Shown here: piece by piece, positions 1 to 58,713 of the stretch
How positions within the stretch are numbered: the first letter of the stretch is position 1
How the letters are laid out: the number at the start of each line of letters is the position of its first letter
Assembly: GCF_026283965.1 (NCBI RefSeq)
Contig: NZ_JAPDPD010000016.1
Coordinates: 62,001 to 126,000, forward strand
DNA: 64,000 nt
Reading direction: 5' to 3'
Origin: Dyella subtropica
GTDB taxonomy: Bacteria > Pseudomonadota > Gammaproteobacteria > Xanthomonadales > Rhodanobacteraceae
Notes under the pieces: generated by a model
What the model saw: the letters and a program-made list of their open reading frames with translations, nothing else
The model's database searches: none
What the model was told of the DNA's origin: nothing
Made by a program: the position numbers and the translations under genes

Positions 1-1375
1 CAATCACGCCAGCCAGTGCCGACGCGGCAGCAGTGGCCGGACTGGCTAGCACCGTGCGCGCCCCTTTGCCCTGACGGCCTTCGAAGTTGCGATTGGAAGT
101 GCTCACCACCAACTGCCCCGGCTGCGCCAGGTCGCCGTTCATGGCGATACACATCGAGCAGCCCGGCACACGCCACTCGGCGCCGGCTTCGGTGAACACC
201 TGGTGCAGGCCTTCGCGTTCCGCATCGCGGCGTACCGCTTCGGAGCCCGGCACCACCAGCATGCGCACGCCGCTGGCGACGCGGCGTCCACGCAGGATGT
301 TGGCGGCCTCGCGCAGATCGGACAGGCGCGAGTTGGTGCAGCTGCCGACGAACACCACGTCCACCGGCGTGCCCTGCATCGGCTTGCCCGGTTCGCTGCG
401 CATGTAGTCGAGCGCACGGGTTTCCTGTGCGGAGCGCGCGGCGGGCACGGGCTTGTCCATCGCGATGGCCATGCCCGGATGGGTGCCGTAGGTGACGGTG
501 GGTTTGACCTTGCTGGCGTCGATGCGCACTTCGCTGTCGTACTGCGCACCCGCATCGGTACGCAGCGCGCGCCACTTCGCCACCGCAGCATCCCAGGCGG
601 CGCCCTGCGGTGTGTGCGGGCGGCCCTTCAGCCAGTTGAAGGTGGTGTCGTCCGGTGCGATCAAGCCCGCACGTGCGCCGGCTTCGATCGACATGTTGCA
701 GACGGTCATGCGCTCGTCCATCGACAGCGCTTCGATAGCGTCGCCGCGGTACTCGATGACGTAGCCGGTGCCACCGTCCACGCCGATCTCGCCGATGATG
801 TGCAGGATCAGATCCTTGGCGCCAACACCCTTGGGCAGATGGCCGTCCACATGGATCGCCAGGGTCTTCGGCTTGCGCTGCAGCAGGCACTGCGTCGCCA
901 TCACATGACCGACTTCGGTGGTGCCGATGCCGAAGGCCAGCGCGCCGAATGCACCATGGGTGGAGGTGTGGCTATCACCGCAAACGATGGTCATGCCTGG
1001 CTGCGTCGCGCCCAGCTCGGGGCCGATCACGTGCACGATGCCGCGGTCGTTGCTGTCCCAACCGTGCAGCGCCACGCCGAACTCACGGCAATTCGCTTCC
1101 AGCTGCGCGACCTGTGCTTTCGCCTCGGCATTTGCGTACGGGCGCTCGCCGTTGGCGGCGGCGGGCAGGGTGGGTGTGGAGTGATCCAGCGTGGCCAGCA
1201 TGCGATCCGGGCGACGCAGTTTCAGGCCGCGCTCGCGCAATTCGGTGAAGGCCTGCGGCGAGGTGACTTCATGCACCAGGTGCAGGTCGACGTAGAGGAT
1301 CGCTGGTGTATCGGTGGTTTCGGGTGCGACGACATGCGCGTCCCATACCTTCTCGAACAAGGTCCGCGGACTCAT
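1..1375 (-). CDS. leuC: 3-isopropylmalate dehydratase large subunit LeuC (3' end outside window)
   Basis: This is the isomerase of leucine biosynthesis, converting 2-isopropylmalate to 3-isopropylmalate with LeuD. The frame reads [16 protein letters not shown] from an ATG at 1375 and is open to the left edge, so about 458 residues are visible and only a short C-terminus is missing. The aconitase-fold [4Fe-4S] ligands are visible as VGSCTNSR (about residue 340) and PGCSMC (about residue 404). An early [12 protein letters not shown] motif is typical of LeuC. The ATG overlaps the ilvE stop as ATGA, so translation is probably coupled. leuD and leuB are expected beyond the left edge (inference). 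No frameshift is seen. Confidence 0.96.
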
Positions 1376-2313
1376 GCGGCCTCCTTCGCGGTGGCGTCGG
1401 CATGTACGGGCGTCAACCAGTTCCAGCGGTCTTCGGTGCTGCCATCGAACAGGCCGAAGAACGCCTGCTGCAATGCGCGTGTCACCGGCCCGGGACGGCC
1501 GGCGCCGACGGGTTTGCGATCGACCGAGCGCACCGGCGTGATCTCAGCAGCGGTGCCGGTCATGAACACTTCGTCGGCGCTGTACAGCGCTTCGCGCGGC
1601 AGGTCGCGTTCTTCGACCTTGATGCCCAAGTCTTCGGCCAGCGTCATCACCGTGTCGCGGGTGATGCCGGCGAGGATGCCGGCGCTGGTCGGCGGGGTGA
1701 GCAGCTTGCCATTCTTCACCACGAACACATTCTCGCCCGCGCCTTCGCTGAGCAGGCCGTTGTGGCCTAGCGCGATGCCTTCGGCGTAGCCGCCGCGGCG
1801 CGCTTCCAGTCCGATCAGCTGGCTGCTCAGGTAATTGCCGCCGGCCTTGGCCCAGCTCGGCACGGTGTTCGGTGCGGGACGTTGCCAAGAGGACACGCAC
1901 ACATCCGCGCCGTGTTCGCGCGCATCGCCGAGATAGGCACCCCATTCCAGCGCCATGATCGCCACGTCCACCGGTGCGCCGTCCTTCGGCAGTACGCCCA
2001 GGCCGCCGGCGCCGCGGAAGACGATCGGGCGCACATAGGCCGAGCCCATGCGGTTCGCGCGGATCACTTCCATGCAGGCGGCGTTGATCTGTTCTTCGGT
2101 GTAGCCGATCTCGATCTCGTACACGCGGGCCGATTCGAACAGACGGCGCGTGTGATCGGCCAGGCGGAAGTAGGCGGGGCCTTGCGGCGTGGCGTACACG
2201 CGCTCGCCCTCGAACACCGAGGAGCCGTAGTGCAGCGCGTGGGTGCTGACGTGGACGGTGGCTTCCGTCCACGGCTTGATGTGGCCGTTGTGCCAGAGAA
2301 AAGGCGTGGTCAT
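1372..2313 (-). CDS. ilvE: branched-chain amino acid aminotransferase
   Basis: A fold-type IV PLP aminotransferase of 313 residues that moves the amino group between glutamate and the keto acids of Leu, Ile and Val. Family marks include WHNGHIKPW near the start, HYGSSVFEG, the PLP lysine in [13 protein letters not shown] (about residue 158), and the [13 protein letters not shown] block about residue 200. The length fits IlvE (about 305-310). The ATG at 2313 overlaps the leuA stop by four bases (ATGA) and the stop overlaps the leuC start the same way. It therefore sits in the middle of a coupled leuA-ilvE-leuC operon, which makes a BCAA role far more likely than D-alanine aminotransferase or ADC lyase. 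Confidence 0.95.
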
Positions 2314-3956
2314 GCGAGGTTCTCCTTTTGCGCGCGTCCATTCGCGCGAAGGTCAGAAAGCGGCCTTCCATGGCCGCACTCATTAAGTCCGGTCTGTCGT
2401 TCGATGCGGTTGACGATGGCGAGCGCGGCGAGGGCGGTCGCTTCGACGATGTCGGTGCTGACGCCGTTGCCGCGCCAGTCGCGCGCGGCGTGGCGGGCGG
2501 TGAGCTGGGCCTGGCCCTGGGCGTCGCCGCCTTCGCTCACGGCGCGTACCTGGAACTGGGTCAGTTCGAGCGCAGTGTCGGTGGCGCGCTGGAATGCGCG
2601 CAGCACGGCATCGACCGGGCCGTCGCCGATGGCGGCCTCACCGATCTCGCGGCCGTCGTCGTGGGACAGCTTCACCGAGGCCGACGCGCTGCCGCCGAGA
2701 TGCGAGGCGGTGTTGAGATGCACCAGATGCCATGGACCGGCAGCGTCCGGGTCCTGGCCCAGGGCCAGCGCTTCCAGATCTTCGTCGTGGATCTCTTGCT
2801 TCTTGTCGGCCAGCGTCTTGAAGCGCGCGAACACGCCGTCCATCAAGCCGTCGTCCAGCTCATGACCCAGTGCCTGCAGGCGCTGGCGCAGTGCATGACG
2901 GCCGGAGTGCTTGCCCAGCACCAGCTTGGTCTCGGCGATGCCGACGTCCTGCGGGCGCATGATTTCGTAAGTGCCGCGATGCTTGAGCATGCCGTGCTGG
3001 TGGATGCCGGACTCATGCGCGAACGCGTTCTCGCCCACGATGGCTTTGTTGCGCGGCACGGCCTGGCCGGTCAGCTGGGTCAGGAGGCGCGAGGTGGGAT
3101 ACAGCTTGCGGCTATCGATACGCGTGCCCACGCCGAAGTGTGGCGCACGCACGCGCAGTGCCATCACGATTTCCTCCAGCGAGGCATTGCCGGCGCGTTC
3201 GCCGATGCCATTGATGGTGCATTCCACCTGGCGCGCACCGGCGCTCACCGCAGCCAGGCTGTTGGCGACCGCCATGCCCAGGTCGTCGTGGCAATGGGTG
3301 GAGAACACCACGCGTTCGGCCCCCTTTACGTGCTGGCGCAGGTAAGCGAACAGCTCGGCCATTTCGGCCGGCGTGGTGTAGCCGACGGTGTCGGGTGCGT
3401 TGAGGGTGGTAGCTCCAGCGGCGATGGCGGCGCTGAAGACTTCGGCCAGGTACTCAGGTTCGGTGCGCAGTGCGTCTTCGGCGGAGAATTCGACTTCGTG
3501 ACACAGGCCATGTGCGCGTTCGATGGCGGCGACGGCGGTATCGATCACCTGCGCCTTGCTCATGCCCAGCTTGTGTTCGCGATGCAGCGGGCTGGTGGAG
3601 AGGAACACGTGGATGCGCGAGTGCTGCGCTGATTCCAGTGCGCGTCCGGTGGTATCGATATCGCCAGGCTGACATCGCGCGAGGCCGCAGATGGTGGAGT
3701 TCCGCACGACTCTGGCGATCTCAGCGACAGCAGCGAAATCGTCGGGCGACGCCTGCGGAAAGCCTGCTTCGATGATGTCGACGCCAAGCGCTTCGAGCGC
3801 GTGCGCCATGCGCAGCTTGGCGCGTCGATCCATGGCAAAGCCGGGCGCCTGCTCGCCATCACGCAAGGTGGTATCGAAGATGCGCACGCGGTCGGCAGCT
3901 ACGTCACTCACGTCGCTGCTCTCGCCGCTGTTGGGTTGATCCTGGGGTTTCATCAT
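2310..3956 (-). CDS. leuA: 2-isopropylmalate synthase LeuA
   Basis: The first committed step of leucine synthesis, condensing acetyl-CoA with 2-ketoisovalerate. The 548 residues carry the DRE-TIM barrel signatures DTTLRDGEQAPG (about residue 29), HCHDDLG and NGIGERAGN. A C-terminal LeuA allosteric domain (about residues 400-548) usually mediates leucine feedback. Two tandem ATG codons (3956 and 3953) follow a GGAG ribosome site, and either may be used. The last 30 residues after the regulatory domain (GLNECGHGRPLSDL onward) are polar and not obviously conserved. It is the first structural gene after the attenuator terminator at 3984-4020, so its expression should respond to charged leucine tRNA. 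Confidence 0.96.
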   Translation of the reverse strand: MMKPQDQPNSGESSDVSDVAADRVRIFDTTLRDGEQAPGFAMDRRAKLRMAHALEALGVDIIEAGFPQASPDDFAAVAEIARVVRNSTICGLARCQPGDIDTTGRALESAQHSRIHVFLSTSPLHREHKLGMSKAQVIDTAVAAIERAHGLCHEVEFSAEDALRTEPEYLAEVFSAAIAAGATTLNAPDTVGYTTPAEMAELFAYLRQHVKGAERVVFSTHCHDDLGMAVANSLAAVSAGARQVECTINGIGERAGNASLEEIVMALRVRAPHFGVGTRIDSRKLYPTSRLLTQLTGQAVPRNKAIVGENAFAHESGIHQHGMLKHRGTYEIMRPQDVGIAETKLVLGKHSGRHALRQRLQALGHELDDGLMDGVFARFKTLADKKQEIHDEDLEALALGQDPDAAGPWHLVHLNTASHLGGSASASVKLSHDDGREIGEAAIGDGPVDAVLRAFQRATDTALELTQFQVRAVSEGGDAQGQAQLTARHAARDWRGNGVSTDIVEATALAALAIVNRIERQTGLNECGHGRPLSDLRANGRAQKENLA

Positions 3957-3983: not shown

Positions 3984-4020
3984 AATAAAAAACCCCGCAT
4001 CCGTTTCCGGGTGCGGGGTT
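3984..4020 (-). terminator. intrinsic terminator of the leu attenuator
   Basis: On the minus strand a 13-bp stem (AACCCCGCACCCG pairing with CGGATGCGGGGTT, one G-U pair, loop GAAA) is followed directly by six U and then AUU. It lies between the leader peptide and leuA, about 28 nt before the leuA ATG, so it can only act as a regulated terminator of the leu operon. Confidence 0.93.
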
Positions 4021-4183
4021 CTTTGGGGTATCTAGGTTAGTTTTGCTTTACCTGGACACAAGCCCTCAGCCCGCACCTCCGTTGGTAATAAGGAGTACGA
4101 GTACGAGGGTAAGAAGGAGGTTGCCGCGCAGTCGCAGCAGGCCGTAGAGCGTCGGGGGACGGCTCTTTTCGGCGGTGCTGAGG
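4010..4183 (-). promoter_or_regulatory. alternative RNA pairings of the leu attenuator
   Basis: Three mutually exclusive pairings can be drawn by hand on the minus-strand RNA. Segment 1 (4183 to 4174, CCUCAGCACC) can pair with segment 2 (around 4077 to 4064, containing GGU...GCUGAGG, with a four-base bulge). Segment 2 (4077 to 4070, GGUGCGGG) is an exact 8-bp complement of segment 3 (4017 to 4010, CCCGCACC), which is the 5' arm of the terminator. This is the classic pause/antiterminator/terminator logic. A ribosome stalled on the Leu/Val codons would cover segment 1 and free segment 2 to block termination. Confidence 0.8.
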
Positions 4184-4203
4184 TGGTTGTTGCGTTGCGA
4201 CAT
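4066..4203 (-). CDS. branched-chain amino acid attenuation leader peptide (45 aa)
   Basis: A short frame from ATG (4203) to TGA (4066-4068). Residues 29-40 read LLLTLVLVLLIT: seven Leu, two Val, one Ile and two Thr. This regulatory codon run is the hallmark of leu/ilv leader peptides. The stop codon lies within segment 2 of the RNA fold, as expected for a ribosome that finishes translation. No Shine-Dalgarno can be placed because the predicted -10 box ends only 7 nt before the ATG, so translation is probably from a leaderless 5' end. The peptide itself is unlikely to have another function. Confidence 0.9.
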   Translation of the reverse strand: MSQRNNHLSTAEKSRPPTLYGLLRLRGNLLLTLVLVLLITNGGAG

Positions 4204-4210
4204 GTGATCG

Positions 4211-4240
4211 AACGTAACGGCGGTCGCTAGGGCTTGTCAA
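4211..4240 (-). promoter_or_regulatory. sigma70-type promoter of the leu operon
   Basis: On the minus strand, TTGACA (4240-4235) and TACGTT (4216-4211) are separated by 18 bp. Seven nucleotides follow the -10 before the leader ATG, which places the transcription start at or within 1-2 nt of that ATG. Confidence 0.8.
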
Positions 4241-56534: not shown

Positions 56535-56814
56535 GGAGAACTCCATCTTCTTTTTTGTGGTTGCCCGGCGCGACGCATGGGGGGGAGTCGTCACGGCGGC
56601 CCGCGCGGGGTTCGCGGGGACCGGAAGGATAAGGGCTTTTTTACAATTCAAAACCCCTGGCGCGAAATTTTTTCCGGGTGGGGTTAAGTCAGCTTCATGT
56701 CAGTCACATGACCTCTGGCATGGGGTGTGGCACGCCGTCGCGGCTTAGCATCGGCCAGTCACATTCCGTTCAACGTCCGCTGCGGGCGTGCGGGTTTTGC
56801 CACAGGAGACCGTT

Positions 56815-58713
56815 TTGAAAGCTTCGCGCCTTGCTTCCGCCATCCTCGCTACGGGCCTCGGCCTGGGCAGTTTCGCCGCCCTTGCCGACGTGCCCGCCCC
56901 GCAGGACGTTCCGCTCAACGGCACTTTGAAGATCGACGTCGACGCCACCGACCTTGCCCGCCGGGTGTTCCGCGTGCACGAAGTGGTGCCGGCGCAGGCG
57001 GGCCCGCTGACCCTGCTGTATCCGCAGTGGCTGCCGGGCAACCATGCGCCGAACGGCCCGATCGACAAGATGGCCGGCCTCAAGGTAACGGCCAATGGCA
57101 AGACGCTGAAGTGGACGCGCGATCCGCTGAATGTGTACGCCTTCCATGTCGATGTGCCGGAAGGCGCGAGCAGTGTGGAGGTGGAGTTCCAGTATTTGTC
57201 GCCGCAGGACACCCGCCAGGGCCGCGTGGTGATGACGCAGGAAATGCTCAACCTGCAGTGGAATGCGGTGACCATATATCCGGCCGGTTACTTCGCCAGC
57301 CGCATCCAGGCCGAGGCGAGCGTCAAGTTCCCCGCCGGCTGGCAGTACGGCAGCGCGTTGGAGCTGGCCTCGCGCGACGGCAACACCGTGCACTTCAAGC
57401 CGATCAAGTACGACGACCTGGTCGATTCGCCGATCTACGCTGGCAAGTACTTCAAGCGTGTGGATCTCGATCCGGGCGCGAAGACGCCCGTGTTCCTCAA
57501 CATCGTGGCCGACGATCCGAAGTATTTGGAGATCAAGCCCGAGCAGCTGAAGGTGCATCAGAACCTGGTGCAGCAGATGTACAAGATGTATGGCGCGCAC
57601 CACTACGACCACTACGATTTCCTGTTCTCGCTCAGCGACAAGATGAGTGGCAACGGCCTGGAGCATCACCGCTCCAGCGAAAACGGTATGTCGCCGAGCT
57701 ATTTCACCGAGTGGGACAAGGGCGTGCTGGGCCGCGACCTGCTGCCGCATGAATTCAACCACTCGTGGGACGGCAAGTACCGCCGTGGCGCGGATCTCGC
57801 CACGCCGAACTTCAACGTGCCCATGCAGGACAGCCTGCTGTGGGTATACGAAGGTCAGACCCAGTTCTGGGGCAATGTGATGGCCGCCCGCTCGGGCTTG
57901 TGGAAGGAAGACGAAGCACGCGACATGCTCGCGATGGTCGCCGCCAACTACGACAAGGGCCGTCCGGGCCTGCAGCAGTGGCGCAACATCCAGGACACCA
58001 CCAACGACCCGATCATCGCCCAGCGTCGCCCGTTGCCGTACCGCAACTACCAGATGAGCGAGGACTATTACTCCGGCGGCCAGATGATCTGGCTCGAAGT
58101 GGACGGCAAGCTGCGCGAGCTGTCCGGCAACAAGCGCTCCATCGACGATTTCGGCAAGGCCTTCTTCGGCATGGAGAACGGCAAGTGGGAGGTCAACACC
58201 TACACCTTCGAGGATGTGGTGAAGACGCTCAACACCATCCAGCCGTACGACTGGGCGCCTTATCTGCGTGAGCGTCTGGACGGCCACGGTCCGATCACCG
58301 GCGGCATCGAAGCCAGCGGCTGGAAGCTCGTTTACAACGACAAGCCGTCGGCCGCGGCCAAGTCAGCGGAAGCGCGCTTCGGCGGCGCCAACCTCACCTA
58401 CTCGCTGGGCGTGTCCATGGCCAAGGGCGGCGATATCAGCGACGTGCTGTGGGACGGCCCCGCCTTCAAGGCCGGTCTGTCGCCGGGCATGAAGATCATC
58501 GCGGTGAACGGCAAAGAGTTCTCCAACGACGCCATGAAGGATGCGGTCACTGCTTCCGCGAAGGACAAGAACCAGCCGATCGAATTGCTGGTGAAGAACT
58601 TCGACCAATACCAGACCCTGCGCATCGACTACCACGATGGCCTGAAGTACCCGCACCTGGAGCGCATCACCGGCAAGCCGGACCGCCTGGCGGATCTGCT
58701 CAAGGCACGTTGA
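56815..58713 (+). CDS. exported M61-family metallopeptidase with PDZ domain
   Basis: 632 residues. The TTG at 56815 is chosen because AGGAG lies six nt upstream and the signal peptide starts there (KASRLASAILATGLGLGSFAALA). An upstream GTG at 56788 would add nine residues. An N-terminal beta domain (about 30-190; LLYPQWLPGNHAPNGPI) precedes the gluzincin core with LPHEFNHSWDGKYRR (zinc site about 311) and WVYEGQTQFWG (third zinc ligand Glu). A C-terminal PDZ domain lies about 520-610 (DVLWDGPAFKAGLSPGMKIIAVNG). M61 enzymes cleave N-terminal Gly/Ala, and this one should act in the periplasm. Confidence 0.93.
   Translation: MKASRLASAILATGLGLGSFAALADVPAPQDVPLNGTLKIDVDATDLARRVFRVHEVVPAQAGPLTLLYPQWLPGNHAPNGPIDKMAGLKVTANGKTLKWTRDPLNVYAFHVDVPEGASSVEVEFQYLSPQDTRQGRVVMTQEMLNLQWNAVTIYPAGYFASRIQAEASVKFPAGWQYGSALELASRDGNTVHFKPIKYDDLVDSPIYAGKYFKRVDLDPGAKTPVFLNIVADDPKYLEIKPEQLKVHQNLVQQMYKMYGAHHYDHYDFLFSLSDKMSGNGLEHHRSSENGMSPSYFTEWDKGVLGRDLLPHEFNHSWDGKYRRGADLATPNFNVPMQDSLLWVYEGQTQFWGNVMAARSGLWKEDEARDMLAMVAANYDKGRPGLQQWRNIQDTTNDPIIAQRRPLPYRNYQMSEDYYSGGQMIWLEVDGKLRELSGNKRSIDDFGKAFFGMENGKWEVNTYTFEDVVKTLNTIQPYDWAPYLRERLDGHGPITGGIEASGWKLVYNDKPSAAAKSAEARFGGANLTYSLGVSMAKGGDISDVLWDGPAFKAGLSPGMKIIAVNGKEFSNDAMKDAVTASAKDKNQPIELLVKNFDQYQTLRIDYHDGLKYPHLERITGKPDRLADLLKAR

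What the first reader, a model, noticed from the sequence alone, without database searches (positions are those of the whole stretch)
3984..4240. Complete leucine-operon attenuator with a 45-codon Leu/Val/Ile leader peptide
Directly seen: a promoter, a short ORF with LLLTLVLVLLIT at codons 29-40, an exact 8-bp antiterminator (4077-4070 with 4017-4010), and a 13-bp terminator with a U run before leuA. A segment-1/segment-2 pairing is also present. The logic follows established ribosome-mediated attenuation of ilv/leu operons. The inference is that leuA-ilvE-leuC responds to Leu (and perhaps Val/Ile) tRNA charging.
Basis: partly seen in the sequence, partly recalled or inferred. Interest (0 to 1): 0.72.

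Follow-up and report, generated by a model that had tools for sequence, protein, structure and literature searches.

The report
Leaderless attenuator of the branched-chain operon
A short gene in front of the leucine/valine/isoleucine pathway acts as a ribosome-read sensor that aborts transcription when these amino acids are plentiful; this is a classic device, but here, and across the bacterial order around it, the message appears to begin exactly at the sensor's own start codon, a form I could not find described for this class of bacteria.

Summary
On the minus strand a 45-codon leader ORF (4203-4066) carries LLLTLVLVLLIT at codons 29-40. It is followed by an exact 8-bp antiterminator and a strong terminator with a U run, directly before leuA. 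Ribosome-mediated attenuation is very well supported. The leader occurs before leuA in 87 of 90 family genomes examined. Antiterminator and terminator are conserved, with compensatory changes. Folding predicts the antiterminator only when a ribosome stalls at codons 29-39. The control codons use rare synonyms (Leu CUU/CUC 98%, Val GUA 88%, Ile AUU 95%).

The new element is the start. A TTGACA...TANNNT promoter sits at fixed distance from the AUG, so transcription should begin at the A of AUG and leave no Shine-Dalgarno site. That geometry occurs four times in the whole genome, twice at attenuator leaders (leu, thr). In 80 related loci all 125 hits are leu or thr leaders. The first seven codons are constrained at nucleotide level. 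The layout recurs in the Xanthomonadaceae ilvC leader. Attenuation is old news; a leaderless version kept across a gammaproteobacterial order is a new variant. No start site has been measured.

The parts
4235..4240 (-). -35 element TTGACA
   Evidence: Conserved at fixed distance from the leader ATG in 134 distinct relatives; nothing conserved further upstream from -150 to -60
4211..4216 (-). -10 element TACGTT (family consensus TANGGT), 18 nt from the -35 element, 7 nt before the ATG
   Evidence: Family alignment anchored at the ATG; weak match to TATAAT, not listed by the consensus scanner
4203..4203 (-). Inferred transcription start at the A of the leader AUG (leaderless mRNA)
   Evidence: Spacing from the -10 element; pyrimidine at -1 (C in 128/134, T in 6) before an invariant A; no measured start site
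4183..4203 (-). Start module AUG UCG CAA CGC AAC AAC CAC (family AUG NCG CAR CGC ANC ANC CAC), CA-rich
   Evidence: Third base G at codon 2 in all 131 NCG cases while the residue changes Ser/Thr/Pro; CGC at codon 4 in 130 of 134 and the only Arg codon there; pS 0.175 against 0.380 in codons 8-27
4066..4203 (-). Leader peptide ORF, 45 codons, MSQRNNHLSTAEKSRPPTLYGLLRLRGNLLLTLVLVLLITNGGAG, stop UGA
   Evidence: Sequence; conserved in 87 of 90 family genomes examined
4084..4119 (-). Control codons 29-40: CUC CUU CUU ACC CUC GUA CUC GUA CUC CUU AUU ACC
   Evidence: Rare synonyms family-wide: Leu CUU/CUC 98%, Val GUA 88%, Ile AUU 95%, against 26%, 7% and 10% in the operon and thr genes
4092..4101 (-). 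Segment 1 (protector; pairs with 4080-4070), alternative register near 4121-4116
   Evidence: Predicted in unoccupied full-length RNA; weakest part of the model
4070..4080 (-). Segment 2 (GGAGGUGCGGG), inside the last leader codons, just before the stop codon
   Evidence: Nearly invariant; pairs with segment 1 or segment 3
4028..4059 (-). Small hairpin GUGUCCAGGU...ACCUAGAUAC nested inside the antiterminator loop
   Evidence: Both-side changes at all nine pairs, but only 48-65% of cells paired across 28 diverse relatives: genus-level feature
4010..4017 (-). Segment 3 (CCCGCACC), 5' arm of the terminator, exact complement of 4077-4070
   Evidence: Antiterminator cells paired 96.8% over 28 relatives
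3985..4024 (-). Intrinsic terminator hairpin with U run
   Evidence: Family median -22.7 kcal/mol; 7 of 12 pairs change on both sides, 0 of 500 shuffles reach this
2310..3956 (-). leuA (2-isopropylmalate synthase), first structural gene
   Evidence: ORF and relatives
1372..2313 (-). ilvE (branched-chain aminotransferase)
   Evidence: ORF; same order in relatives
1..1375 (-). leuC; cluster continues off the window: leuD-leuB-ilvD-ilvC-ilvG-ilvM/H-ilvA
   Evidence: Own contig C7 46000-65000 (L202) and three other genera

Best explanation
This is a ribosome-mediated transcription attenuator controlling a ten-gene branched-chain amino acid cluster, and it is leaderless. RNA polymerase starts at the A of the leader AUG. 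A ribosome loads on the 5'-terminal AUG without a Shine-Dalgarno site (probably as a 70S particle, helped by the CA-rich first codons) and follows the polymerase. If charged tRNA-Leu(GAG), tRNA-Val(UAC) or tRNA-Ile is scarce, it stalls at codons 29-39, leaving segment 2 free and segment 1 covered; segment 2 then pairs with segment 3 and transcription continues into leuA. If charged tRNAs are ample, the ribosome reaches the stop codon, covers segment 2, the terminator forms and transcription ends near 3987. Shown by computation: the ORF, codon bias, alternative pairings, their conservation, the ribosome-position switch, and the promoter/AUG geometry. Inferred: start at the AUG, leaderless initiation, the termination response, cotranscription of all ten genes.
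For: Leader before leuA in 87/90 family genomes and 80/80 named relatives. Switch in own RNA: P(antiterminator) 0.96-0.99 with A site at codons 29-39, 0 from codon 41; same window in 28 diverse relatives, and in Xanthomonadaceae the window moves together with the codons. Terminator: 93.9% of cells paired, 7 pairs with both-side changes, covariation 0/500 shuffles; antiterminator 96.8% of cells, and different sequences with preserved complementarity in other families (CGAGGUGUG/CGCACCUCG, CGGGGGCG/CGCCCCCG, GGGGCUUUU/AAAAGCCCC). Rare-codon bias only in the control run; matching tRNAs present. Leu-only leaders in several genomes where the neighbourhood holds only leuACDB; Leu/Val/Ile leaders where ilv genes are linked. 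Leaderless: promoter at fixed spacing from ATG in 134 sequences with pyrimidine at -1; pattern 4 times in 4.95 Mb, 2 of them attenuators, 0 for the reversed control; 125/125 hits in 80 related loci are leu or thr leaders.
Against: No RNA data: neither a 5' end nor a terminated transcript has been measured. At equilibrium the full-length RNA always favours the terminator, so the switch depends on kinetics, as in known attenuators. The -10 element is a poor sigma-70 match. The 8-bp antiterminator in this sequence alone is not beyond chance. One leuACDB-type leader (L206) still carries Ile codons, so the match of codons to operon content is not perfect.
Confidence: 0.88

Rival explanations
1. A conventional attenuator with an ordinary 5' UTR: a further promoter upstream makes the real leader mRNA, and the TTGACA/TANNNT match is secondary or unused.
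For: The -10 element is weak and the consensus scanner finds no promoter in the region.
Against: Nothing is conserved from -150 to -60 (mean information about 0.1 bit) while -37 to -1 is strongly conserved; no conserved Shine-Dalgarno-like run precedes the ATG; the geometry recurs at thr leaders and at Xanthomonadaceae ilvC leaders.
Confidence: 0.1
2. The ORF encodes a functional small membrane or trans-acting peptide, and the terminator is incidental or secondary.
For: The hydrophobic run and the N-terminal M(S/T/P)QRN are conserved; a leaderless leader peptide with a trans role is known in S. meliloti (PMC7298713).
Against: Codons 8-27 show pN/pS 1.06, that is no selection on the protein; the N-terminal constraint is on nucleotides, with residue changes tolerated; the conserved C-terminus is the RNA segment 2; other families replace the run (LLALRLLAR) while keeping the RNA switch.
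Confidence: 0.06
3. Read-through is set by a protein or a riboswitch ligand rather than by the ribosome; the ORF is a bystander.
For: The small nested hairpin (4059-4028) is an extra conserved structure in core genera.
Against: No Rfam family at gathering or meaningful E-value; control-codon bias and its exact alignment with the switch window have no role in such a model.
Confidence: 0.03

Closest known systems
Ribosome-mediated leu attenuator of E. coli/Salmonella (Rfam Leu_leader RF00512)
   Different: No Rfam match; senses Val and Ile as well; no Shine-Dalgarno site; uses CUU/CUC rather than CUA (CUA from PMC1183508); controls ilv genes too
ilvGMEDA attenuator of enterobacteria (ilvL; own knowledge)
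   Same: One leader with Leu, Val and Ile codons controlling branched-chain genes
   Different: Unrelated leader sequence; here the leu genes lead the cluster; leaderless start
Xanthomonadaceae leader before ilvC-ilvG-ilvM-ilvA-leuA-leuCDB (found here; I recall ilv attenuators listed for Xanthomonadales by Vitreschak et al. 2004, a paper not held and not checked)
   Same: Similar run L(L)VLVLIT, GAG motif, GGUGCGGG antiterminator segment, same promoter/ATG spacing and AUG NNG CAN start
   Different: Gene order differs, and the leader sits before ilvC instead of leuA; antiterminator segment lies further from the stop codon
Leaderless trp attenuator trpL of Sinorhizobium meliloti (PMC7298713)
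   Same: Attenuator RNA starts at the ATG of the leader ORF
   Different: Alphaproteobacterium, 14-codon Trp leader, the peptide acts in trans; unrelated sequence
Leaderless poly-Cys uORFs of mycobacteria (Canestrari et al. 2020, as summarised in PMC9031893)
   Same: Small leaderless ORF whose ribosome senses an amino acid and controls downstream genes
   Different: Actinobacteria, cysteine; described in the review as regulating translation of downstream genes

Membership tests
Ribosome-mediated transcription attenuator (leader-peptide type) | Short ORF with codons for the amino acids made by the operon | tested here: met
   Codons 29-40 LLLTLVLVLLIT; conserved in 87/90 family genomes
Ribosome-mediated transcription attenuator (leader-peptide type) | Intrinsic terminator with U run before the first structural gene | tested here: met
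   Conserved with covariation
Ribosome-mediated transcription attenuator (leader-peptide type) | Mutually exclusive antiterminator using the terminator's 5' arm | tested here: met
Ribosome-mediated transcription attenuator (leader-peptide type) | Stalling at control codons frees the antiterminator segment; a ribosome at the stop codon hides it | tested here: met
   Computed switch at codons 29-39; prediction only
Ribosome-mediated transcription attenuator (leader-peptide type) | Read-through rises on starvation for the amino acid | not testable with these tools
   Needs an experiment
Rfam Leu_leader RF00512 | Covariance-model match | tested here: not met
   No match at gathering or with E up to 10
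Leaderless mRNA | Transcription start at, or within a few bases of, the AUG | tested here: inconclusive
   Promoter geometry and its conservation; no measured 5' end
Leaderless mRNA | No Shine-Dalgarno site upstream of the AUG | tested here: met
   Only 7 nt lie between the -10 element and the ATG; no conserved purine run in the family alignment
Functional small protein | Purifying selection on the peptide (pN/pS well below 1) | tested here: not met
   pN/pS 1.06 in codons 8-27

The most novel reading that the evidence does not exclude
The leaderless start is itself part of the regulation: an order-wide start module, shared by leu/ilv and thr attenuators, puts loading of the pioneer ribosome on the 5'-terminal AUG by 70S particles, so that attenuation reads the state of the ribosome pool as well as tRNA charging and is locked in step with the polymerase from the first nucleotide.
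Probability: 0.25. Interest if true: 0.7.

Novelty: new variant of a known kind. Interest (0 to 1): 0.5.

Why it matters
Attenuation is textbook, but its examples in Gammaproteobacteria are taught with a Shine-Dalgarno-led leader peptide. If this whole order uses leaderless leader peptides, it gives a natural, conserved setting in which to ask how the first ribosome is loaded in step with RNA polymerase without a 5' UTR. The strict, family-wide choice of rare isoacceptor codons is a direct test, in high-GC bacteria, of the selective-charging theory of control codons (PMC1183508). Leaders that broadly follow operon content (Leu only versus Leu/Val/Ile) offer a natural series for studying how a multi-amino-acid sensor evolves.

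Tried and rejected
Rfam at gathering and relaxed thresholds: no family. Simple promoter/terminator scanner: misses both elements for reasons given in the report. A swap test of duplex energies between species was muddled by variable cutting of the arms and was replaced by helix length with shuffles. A histidine leader upstream of hisG was looked for in the own genome and not found with a simple His-run filter. A second attenuator in the 447-nt gap between ilvC and ilvG: the gap holds an apparent VOC-like ORF (by eye) and, just after the ilvC stop, a strong GC hairpin with a broken T tract, which might be an internal terminator; not pursued. Functional small protein: rejected on pN/pS. Literature: no paper found in the held library on leaderless leader peptides in Gammaproteobacteria; Vitreschak et al. 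2004, the key catalogue of proteobacterial attenuators, is not held, so prior prediction of the Xanthomonadales attenuators could not be checked.

Full report
CHECK OF THE OBSERVATION. The RNA folds 5.7 standard deviations better than shuffles. The 8-bp match alone is not significant in this sequence (p about 0.06), and a simple scanner misses the promoter (weak -10) and the terminator (mismatch in the stem, long loop by its rules). So the case rests on comparison.

WHERE IT COMES FROM. The window is part of a 4.95-Mb genome. The nearest named relative by leuA is Dyella sp. OK004 (95% identity over the first 185 residues), then other Dyella, Rhodanobacter, Frateuria and Luteibacter, that is Rhodanobacteraceae.

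CONSERVATION. LeuA was found in 101 of 117 family genomes sampled. I read the upstream region in 90 of them and in 80 named loci, partly the same strains. A leader with the Leu/Val/Ile run lies before leuA in 87 of the 90 and in all 80. 134 distinct leader regions were used for what follows. Codons 8-27 drift freely (pN/pS 1.06), whereas the control run and segment 2 are held. This is the pattern of a cis-acting leader, not of a protein.

SWITCH. In 28 diverse family members the terminator has 93.9% of cells paired, with both-side changes at 7 of 12 pairs (0 of 500 shuffles). The antiterminator has 96.8% paired, but it is nearly invariant, so covariation inside the family is small. Across families the complementarity is kept with different letters: CGAGGUGUG/CGCACCUCG and CGGGGGCG/CGCCCCCG in one family, GGGGCUUUU/AAAAGCCCC in another, and a shifted register (CGGAGGUG/CACCUCCG) in L082. 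With a ribosome placed codon by codon and the RNA ended in the terminator loop, the antiterminator has probability 0.96-0.99 for A-site codons 29-39, 0.60 at codon 40 and 0 from codon 41; upstream positions give 0.3-0.6. The 28 relatives show the same window (0.82-0.89 at codons -17 to -7 from the stop). In nine Xanthomonadaceae the window ends earlier (about -11), where their control codons also end. Full-length RNA at equilibrium always prefers the terminator, so the decision must be kinetic.

CODONS. In the control run Leu is CUU or CUC in 98% of cases (26% in the operon and thr genes), Val is GUA in 88% (7%), Ile is AUU in 95% (10%); the rest of the same leaders does not show this. The genome has tRNA-Leu(GAG) and tRNA-Val(UAC). 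This fits the selective-charging account of control codons (PMC1183508). Which isoacceptor loses its charge first here is not known.

OPERON. The cluster is leuA-ilvE-leuC-leuD-leuB-ilvD-ilvC-ilvG-ilvM/H-ilvA, all on one strand, and nearly the same in three other genomes. Cotranscription is not shown; a 447-nt gap with its own ORF and a hairpin lies between ilvC and ilvG. In Xanthomonadaceae the order is ilvC-ilvG-...-ilvA-leuA-leuCDB, and a similar leader (L(L)VLVLIT...GAG) stands before ilvC. In genomes of two other families where the neighbourhood holds only leuACDB, the leaders carry Leu codons only (LLALRLLAR; SALLLGELLLL), with one exception that keeps Ile codons (L206).

LEADERLESS START. 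Anchored at the ATG, the family shows TTGACA at about -37 to -32, TANGGT at -13 to -8, and a pyrimidine at -1 in all 134 sequences (C in 128, T in 6). Nothing is conserved from -150 to -60. With usual sigma-70 spacing, transcription begins at the A of AUG. The pattern TTGAC-N17..19-TANNNT-N6..7-ATG occurs four times in the whole genome; two are the leu and thr leaders, and the reversed control gives none. With NCGC after the ATG only those two remain. In 80 related loci (1.9 Mb, both strands) there are 125 hits, all of them leu or thr leaders; two that my filter called 'other' are leu leaders by inspection. Similar spacing is seen before the ilvC leaders of Xanthomonadaceae and the leuA leaders of a third family. 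The first seven codons read AUG NCG CAR CGC ANC ANC CAC. Codon 2 is Ser, Thr or Pro, but its last two bases are CG in 131 of 134, where G is the third base of about half of such codons in the middle of the leader; codon 4 is CGC in 130 of 134. CA-rich sequence after the start codon raises translation of leaderless mRNA in E. coli (review PMC9031893, citing Martin-Farmer and Janssen 1999), a plausible but untested reason for this constraint.

WHAT IS KNOWN. Leaderless attenuator ORFs are known in S. meliloti (trpL, PMC7298713) and mycobacteria (Canestrari et al. 2020, via PMC9031893). I found none reported for Gammaproteobacteria in the held library, which lacks most subscription papers. Attenuation of ilv/leu operons in proteobacteria is long established; the 2004 catalogue by Vitreschak et al. 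is not held, and I recall but could not check that it lists Xanthomonadales.

VERDICT. The leaderless architecture, kept across genera and shared with the thr leader, is the part worth following: a new variant of a known kind, resting on sequence alone until a 5' end is mapped.

Noticed in passing
window 8971-8777, minus strand: Threonine leader MSPLSQPARMHHAPVCTGRMPLSAGVMSATMSATTITTGTGTTGYGWVSARE with the same leaderless promoter, before hom-thrB-thrC. A strong conserved GC hairpin follows the stop but has no U run in any of ten relatives, so it may act on translation of hom or with Rho rather than as an intrinsic terminator.
   Followed up: partly
L202 10700-11190 (own contig C7, about 56700-57190): The gap between ilvC and ilvG holds a short ORF (VOC-like by eye) and a strong hairpin just after the ilvC stop with a broken T tract: a possible internal terminator within the branched-chain cluster.
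   Followed up: no
L330 43-189 (own contig C46, about 193102-193248): Two abutting odd tRNA-like genes: one with a four-base anticodon reading (tcga) and one called tRNA-Ile(AAU), unusual for bacteria; perhaps part of a mobile element or degenerate.
   Followed up: no
L083, L088 (two genomes of one genus): Diverged leaders starting MFTRTAP instead of MSQRN, with a changed segment 2 (GGAGCAGCGGG) and terminator arm (CCCGCUCC) that still complement each other over 6 bp.
   Followed up: partly
L074, L080, L081, L083 and other distant family members: The small hairpin nested in the antiterminator loop of core genera (window 4059-4028) is absent or changed in distant genera; its role is unknown.
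   Followed up: partly
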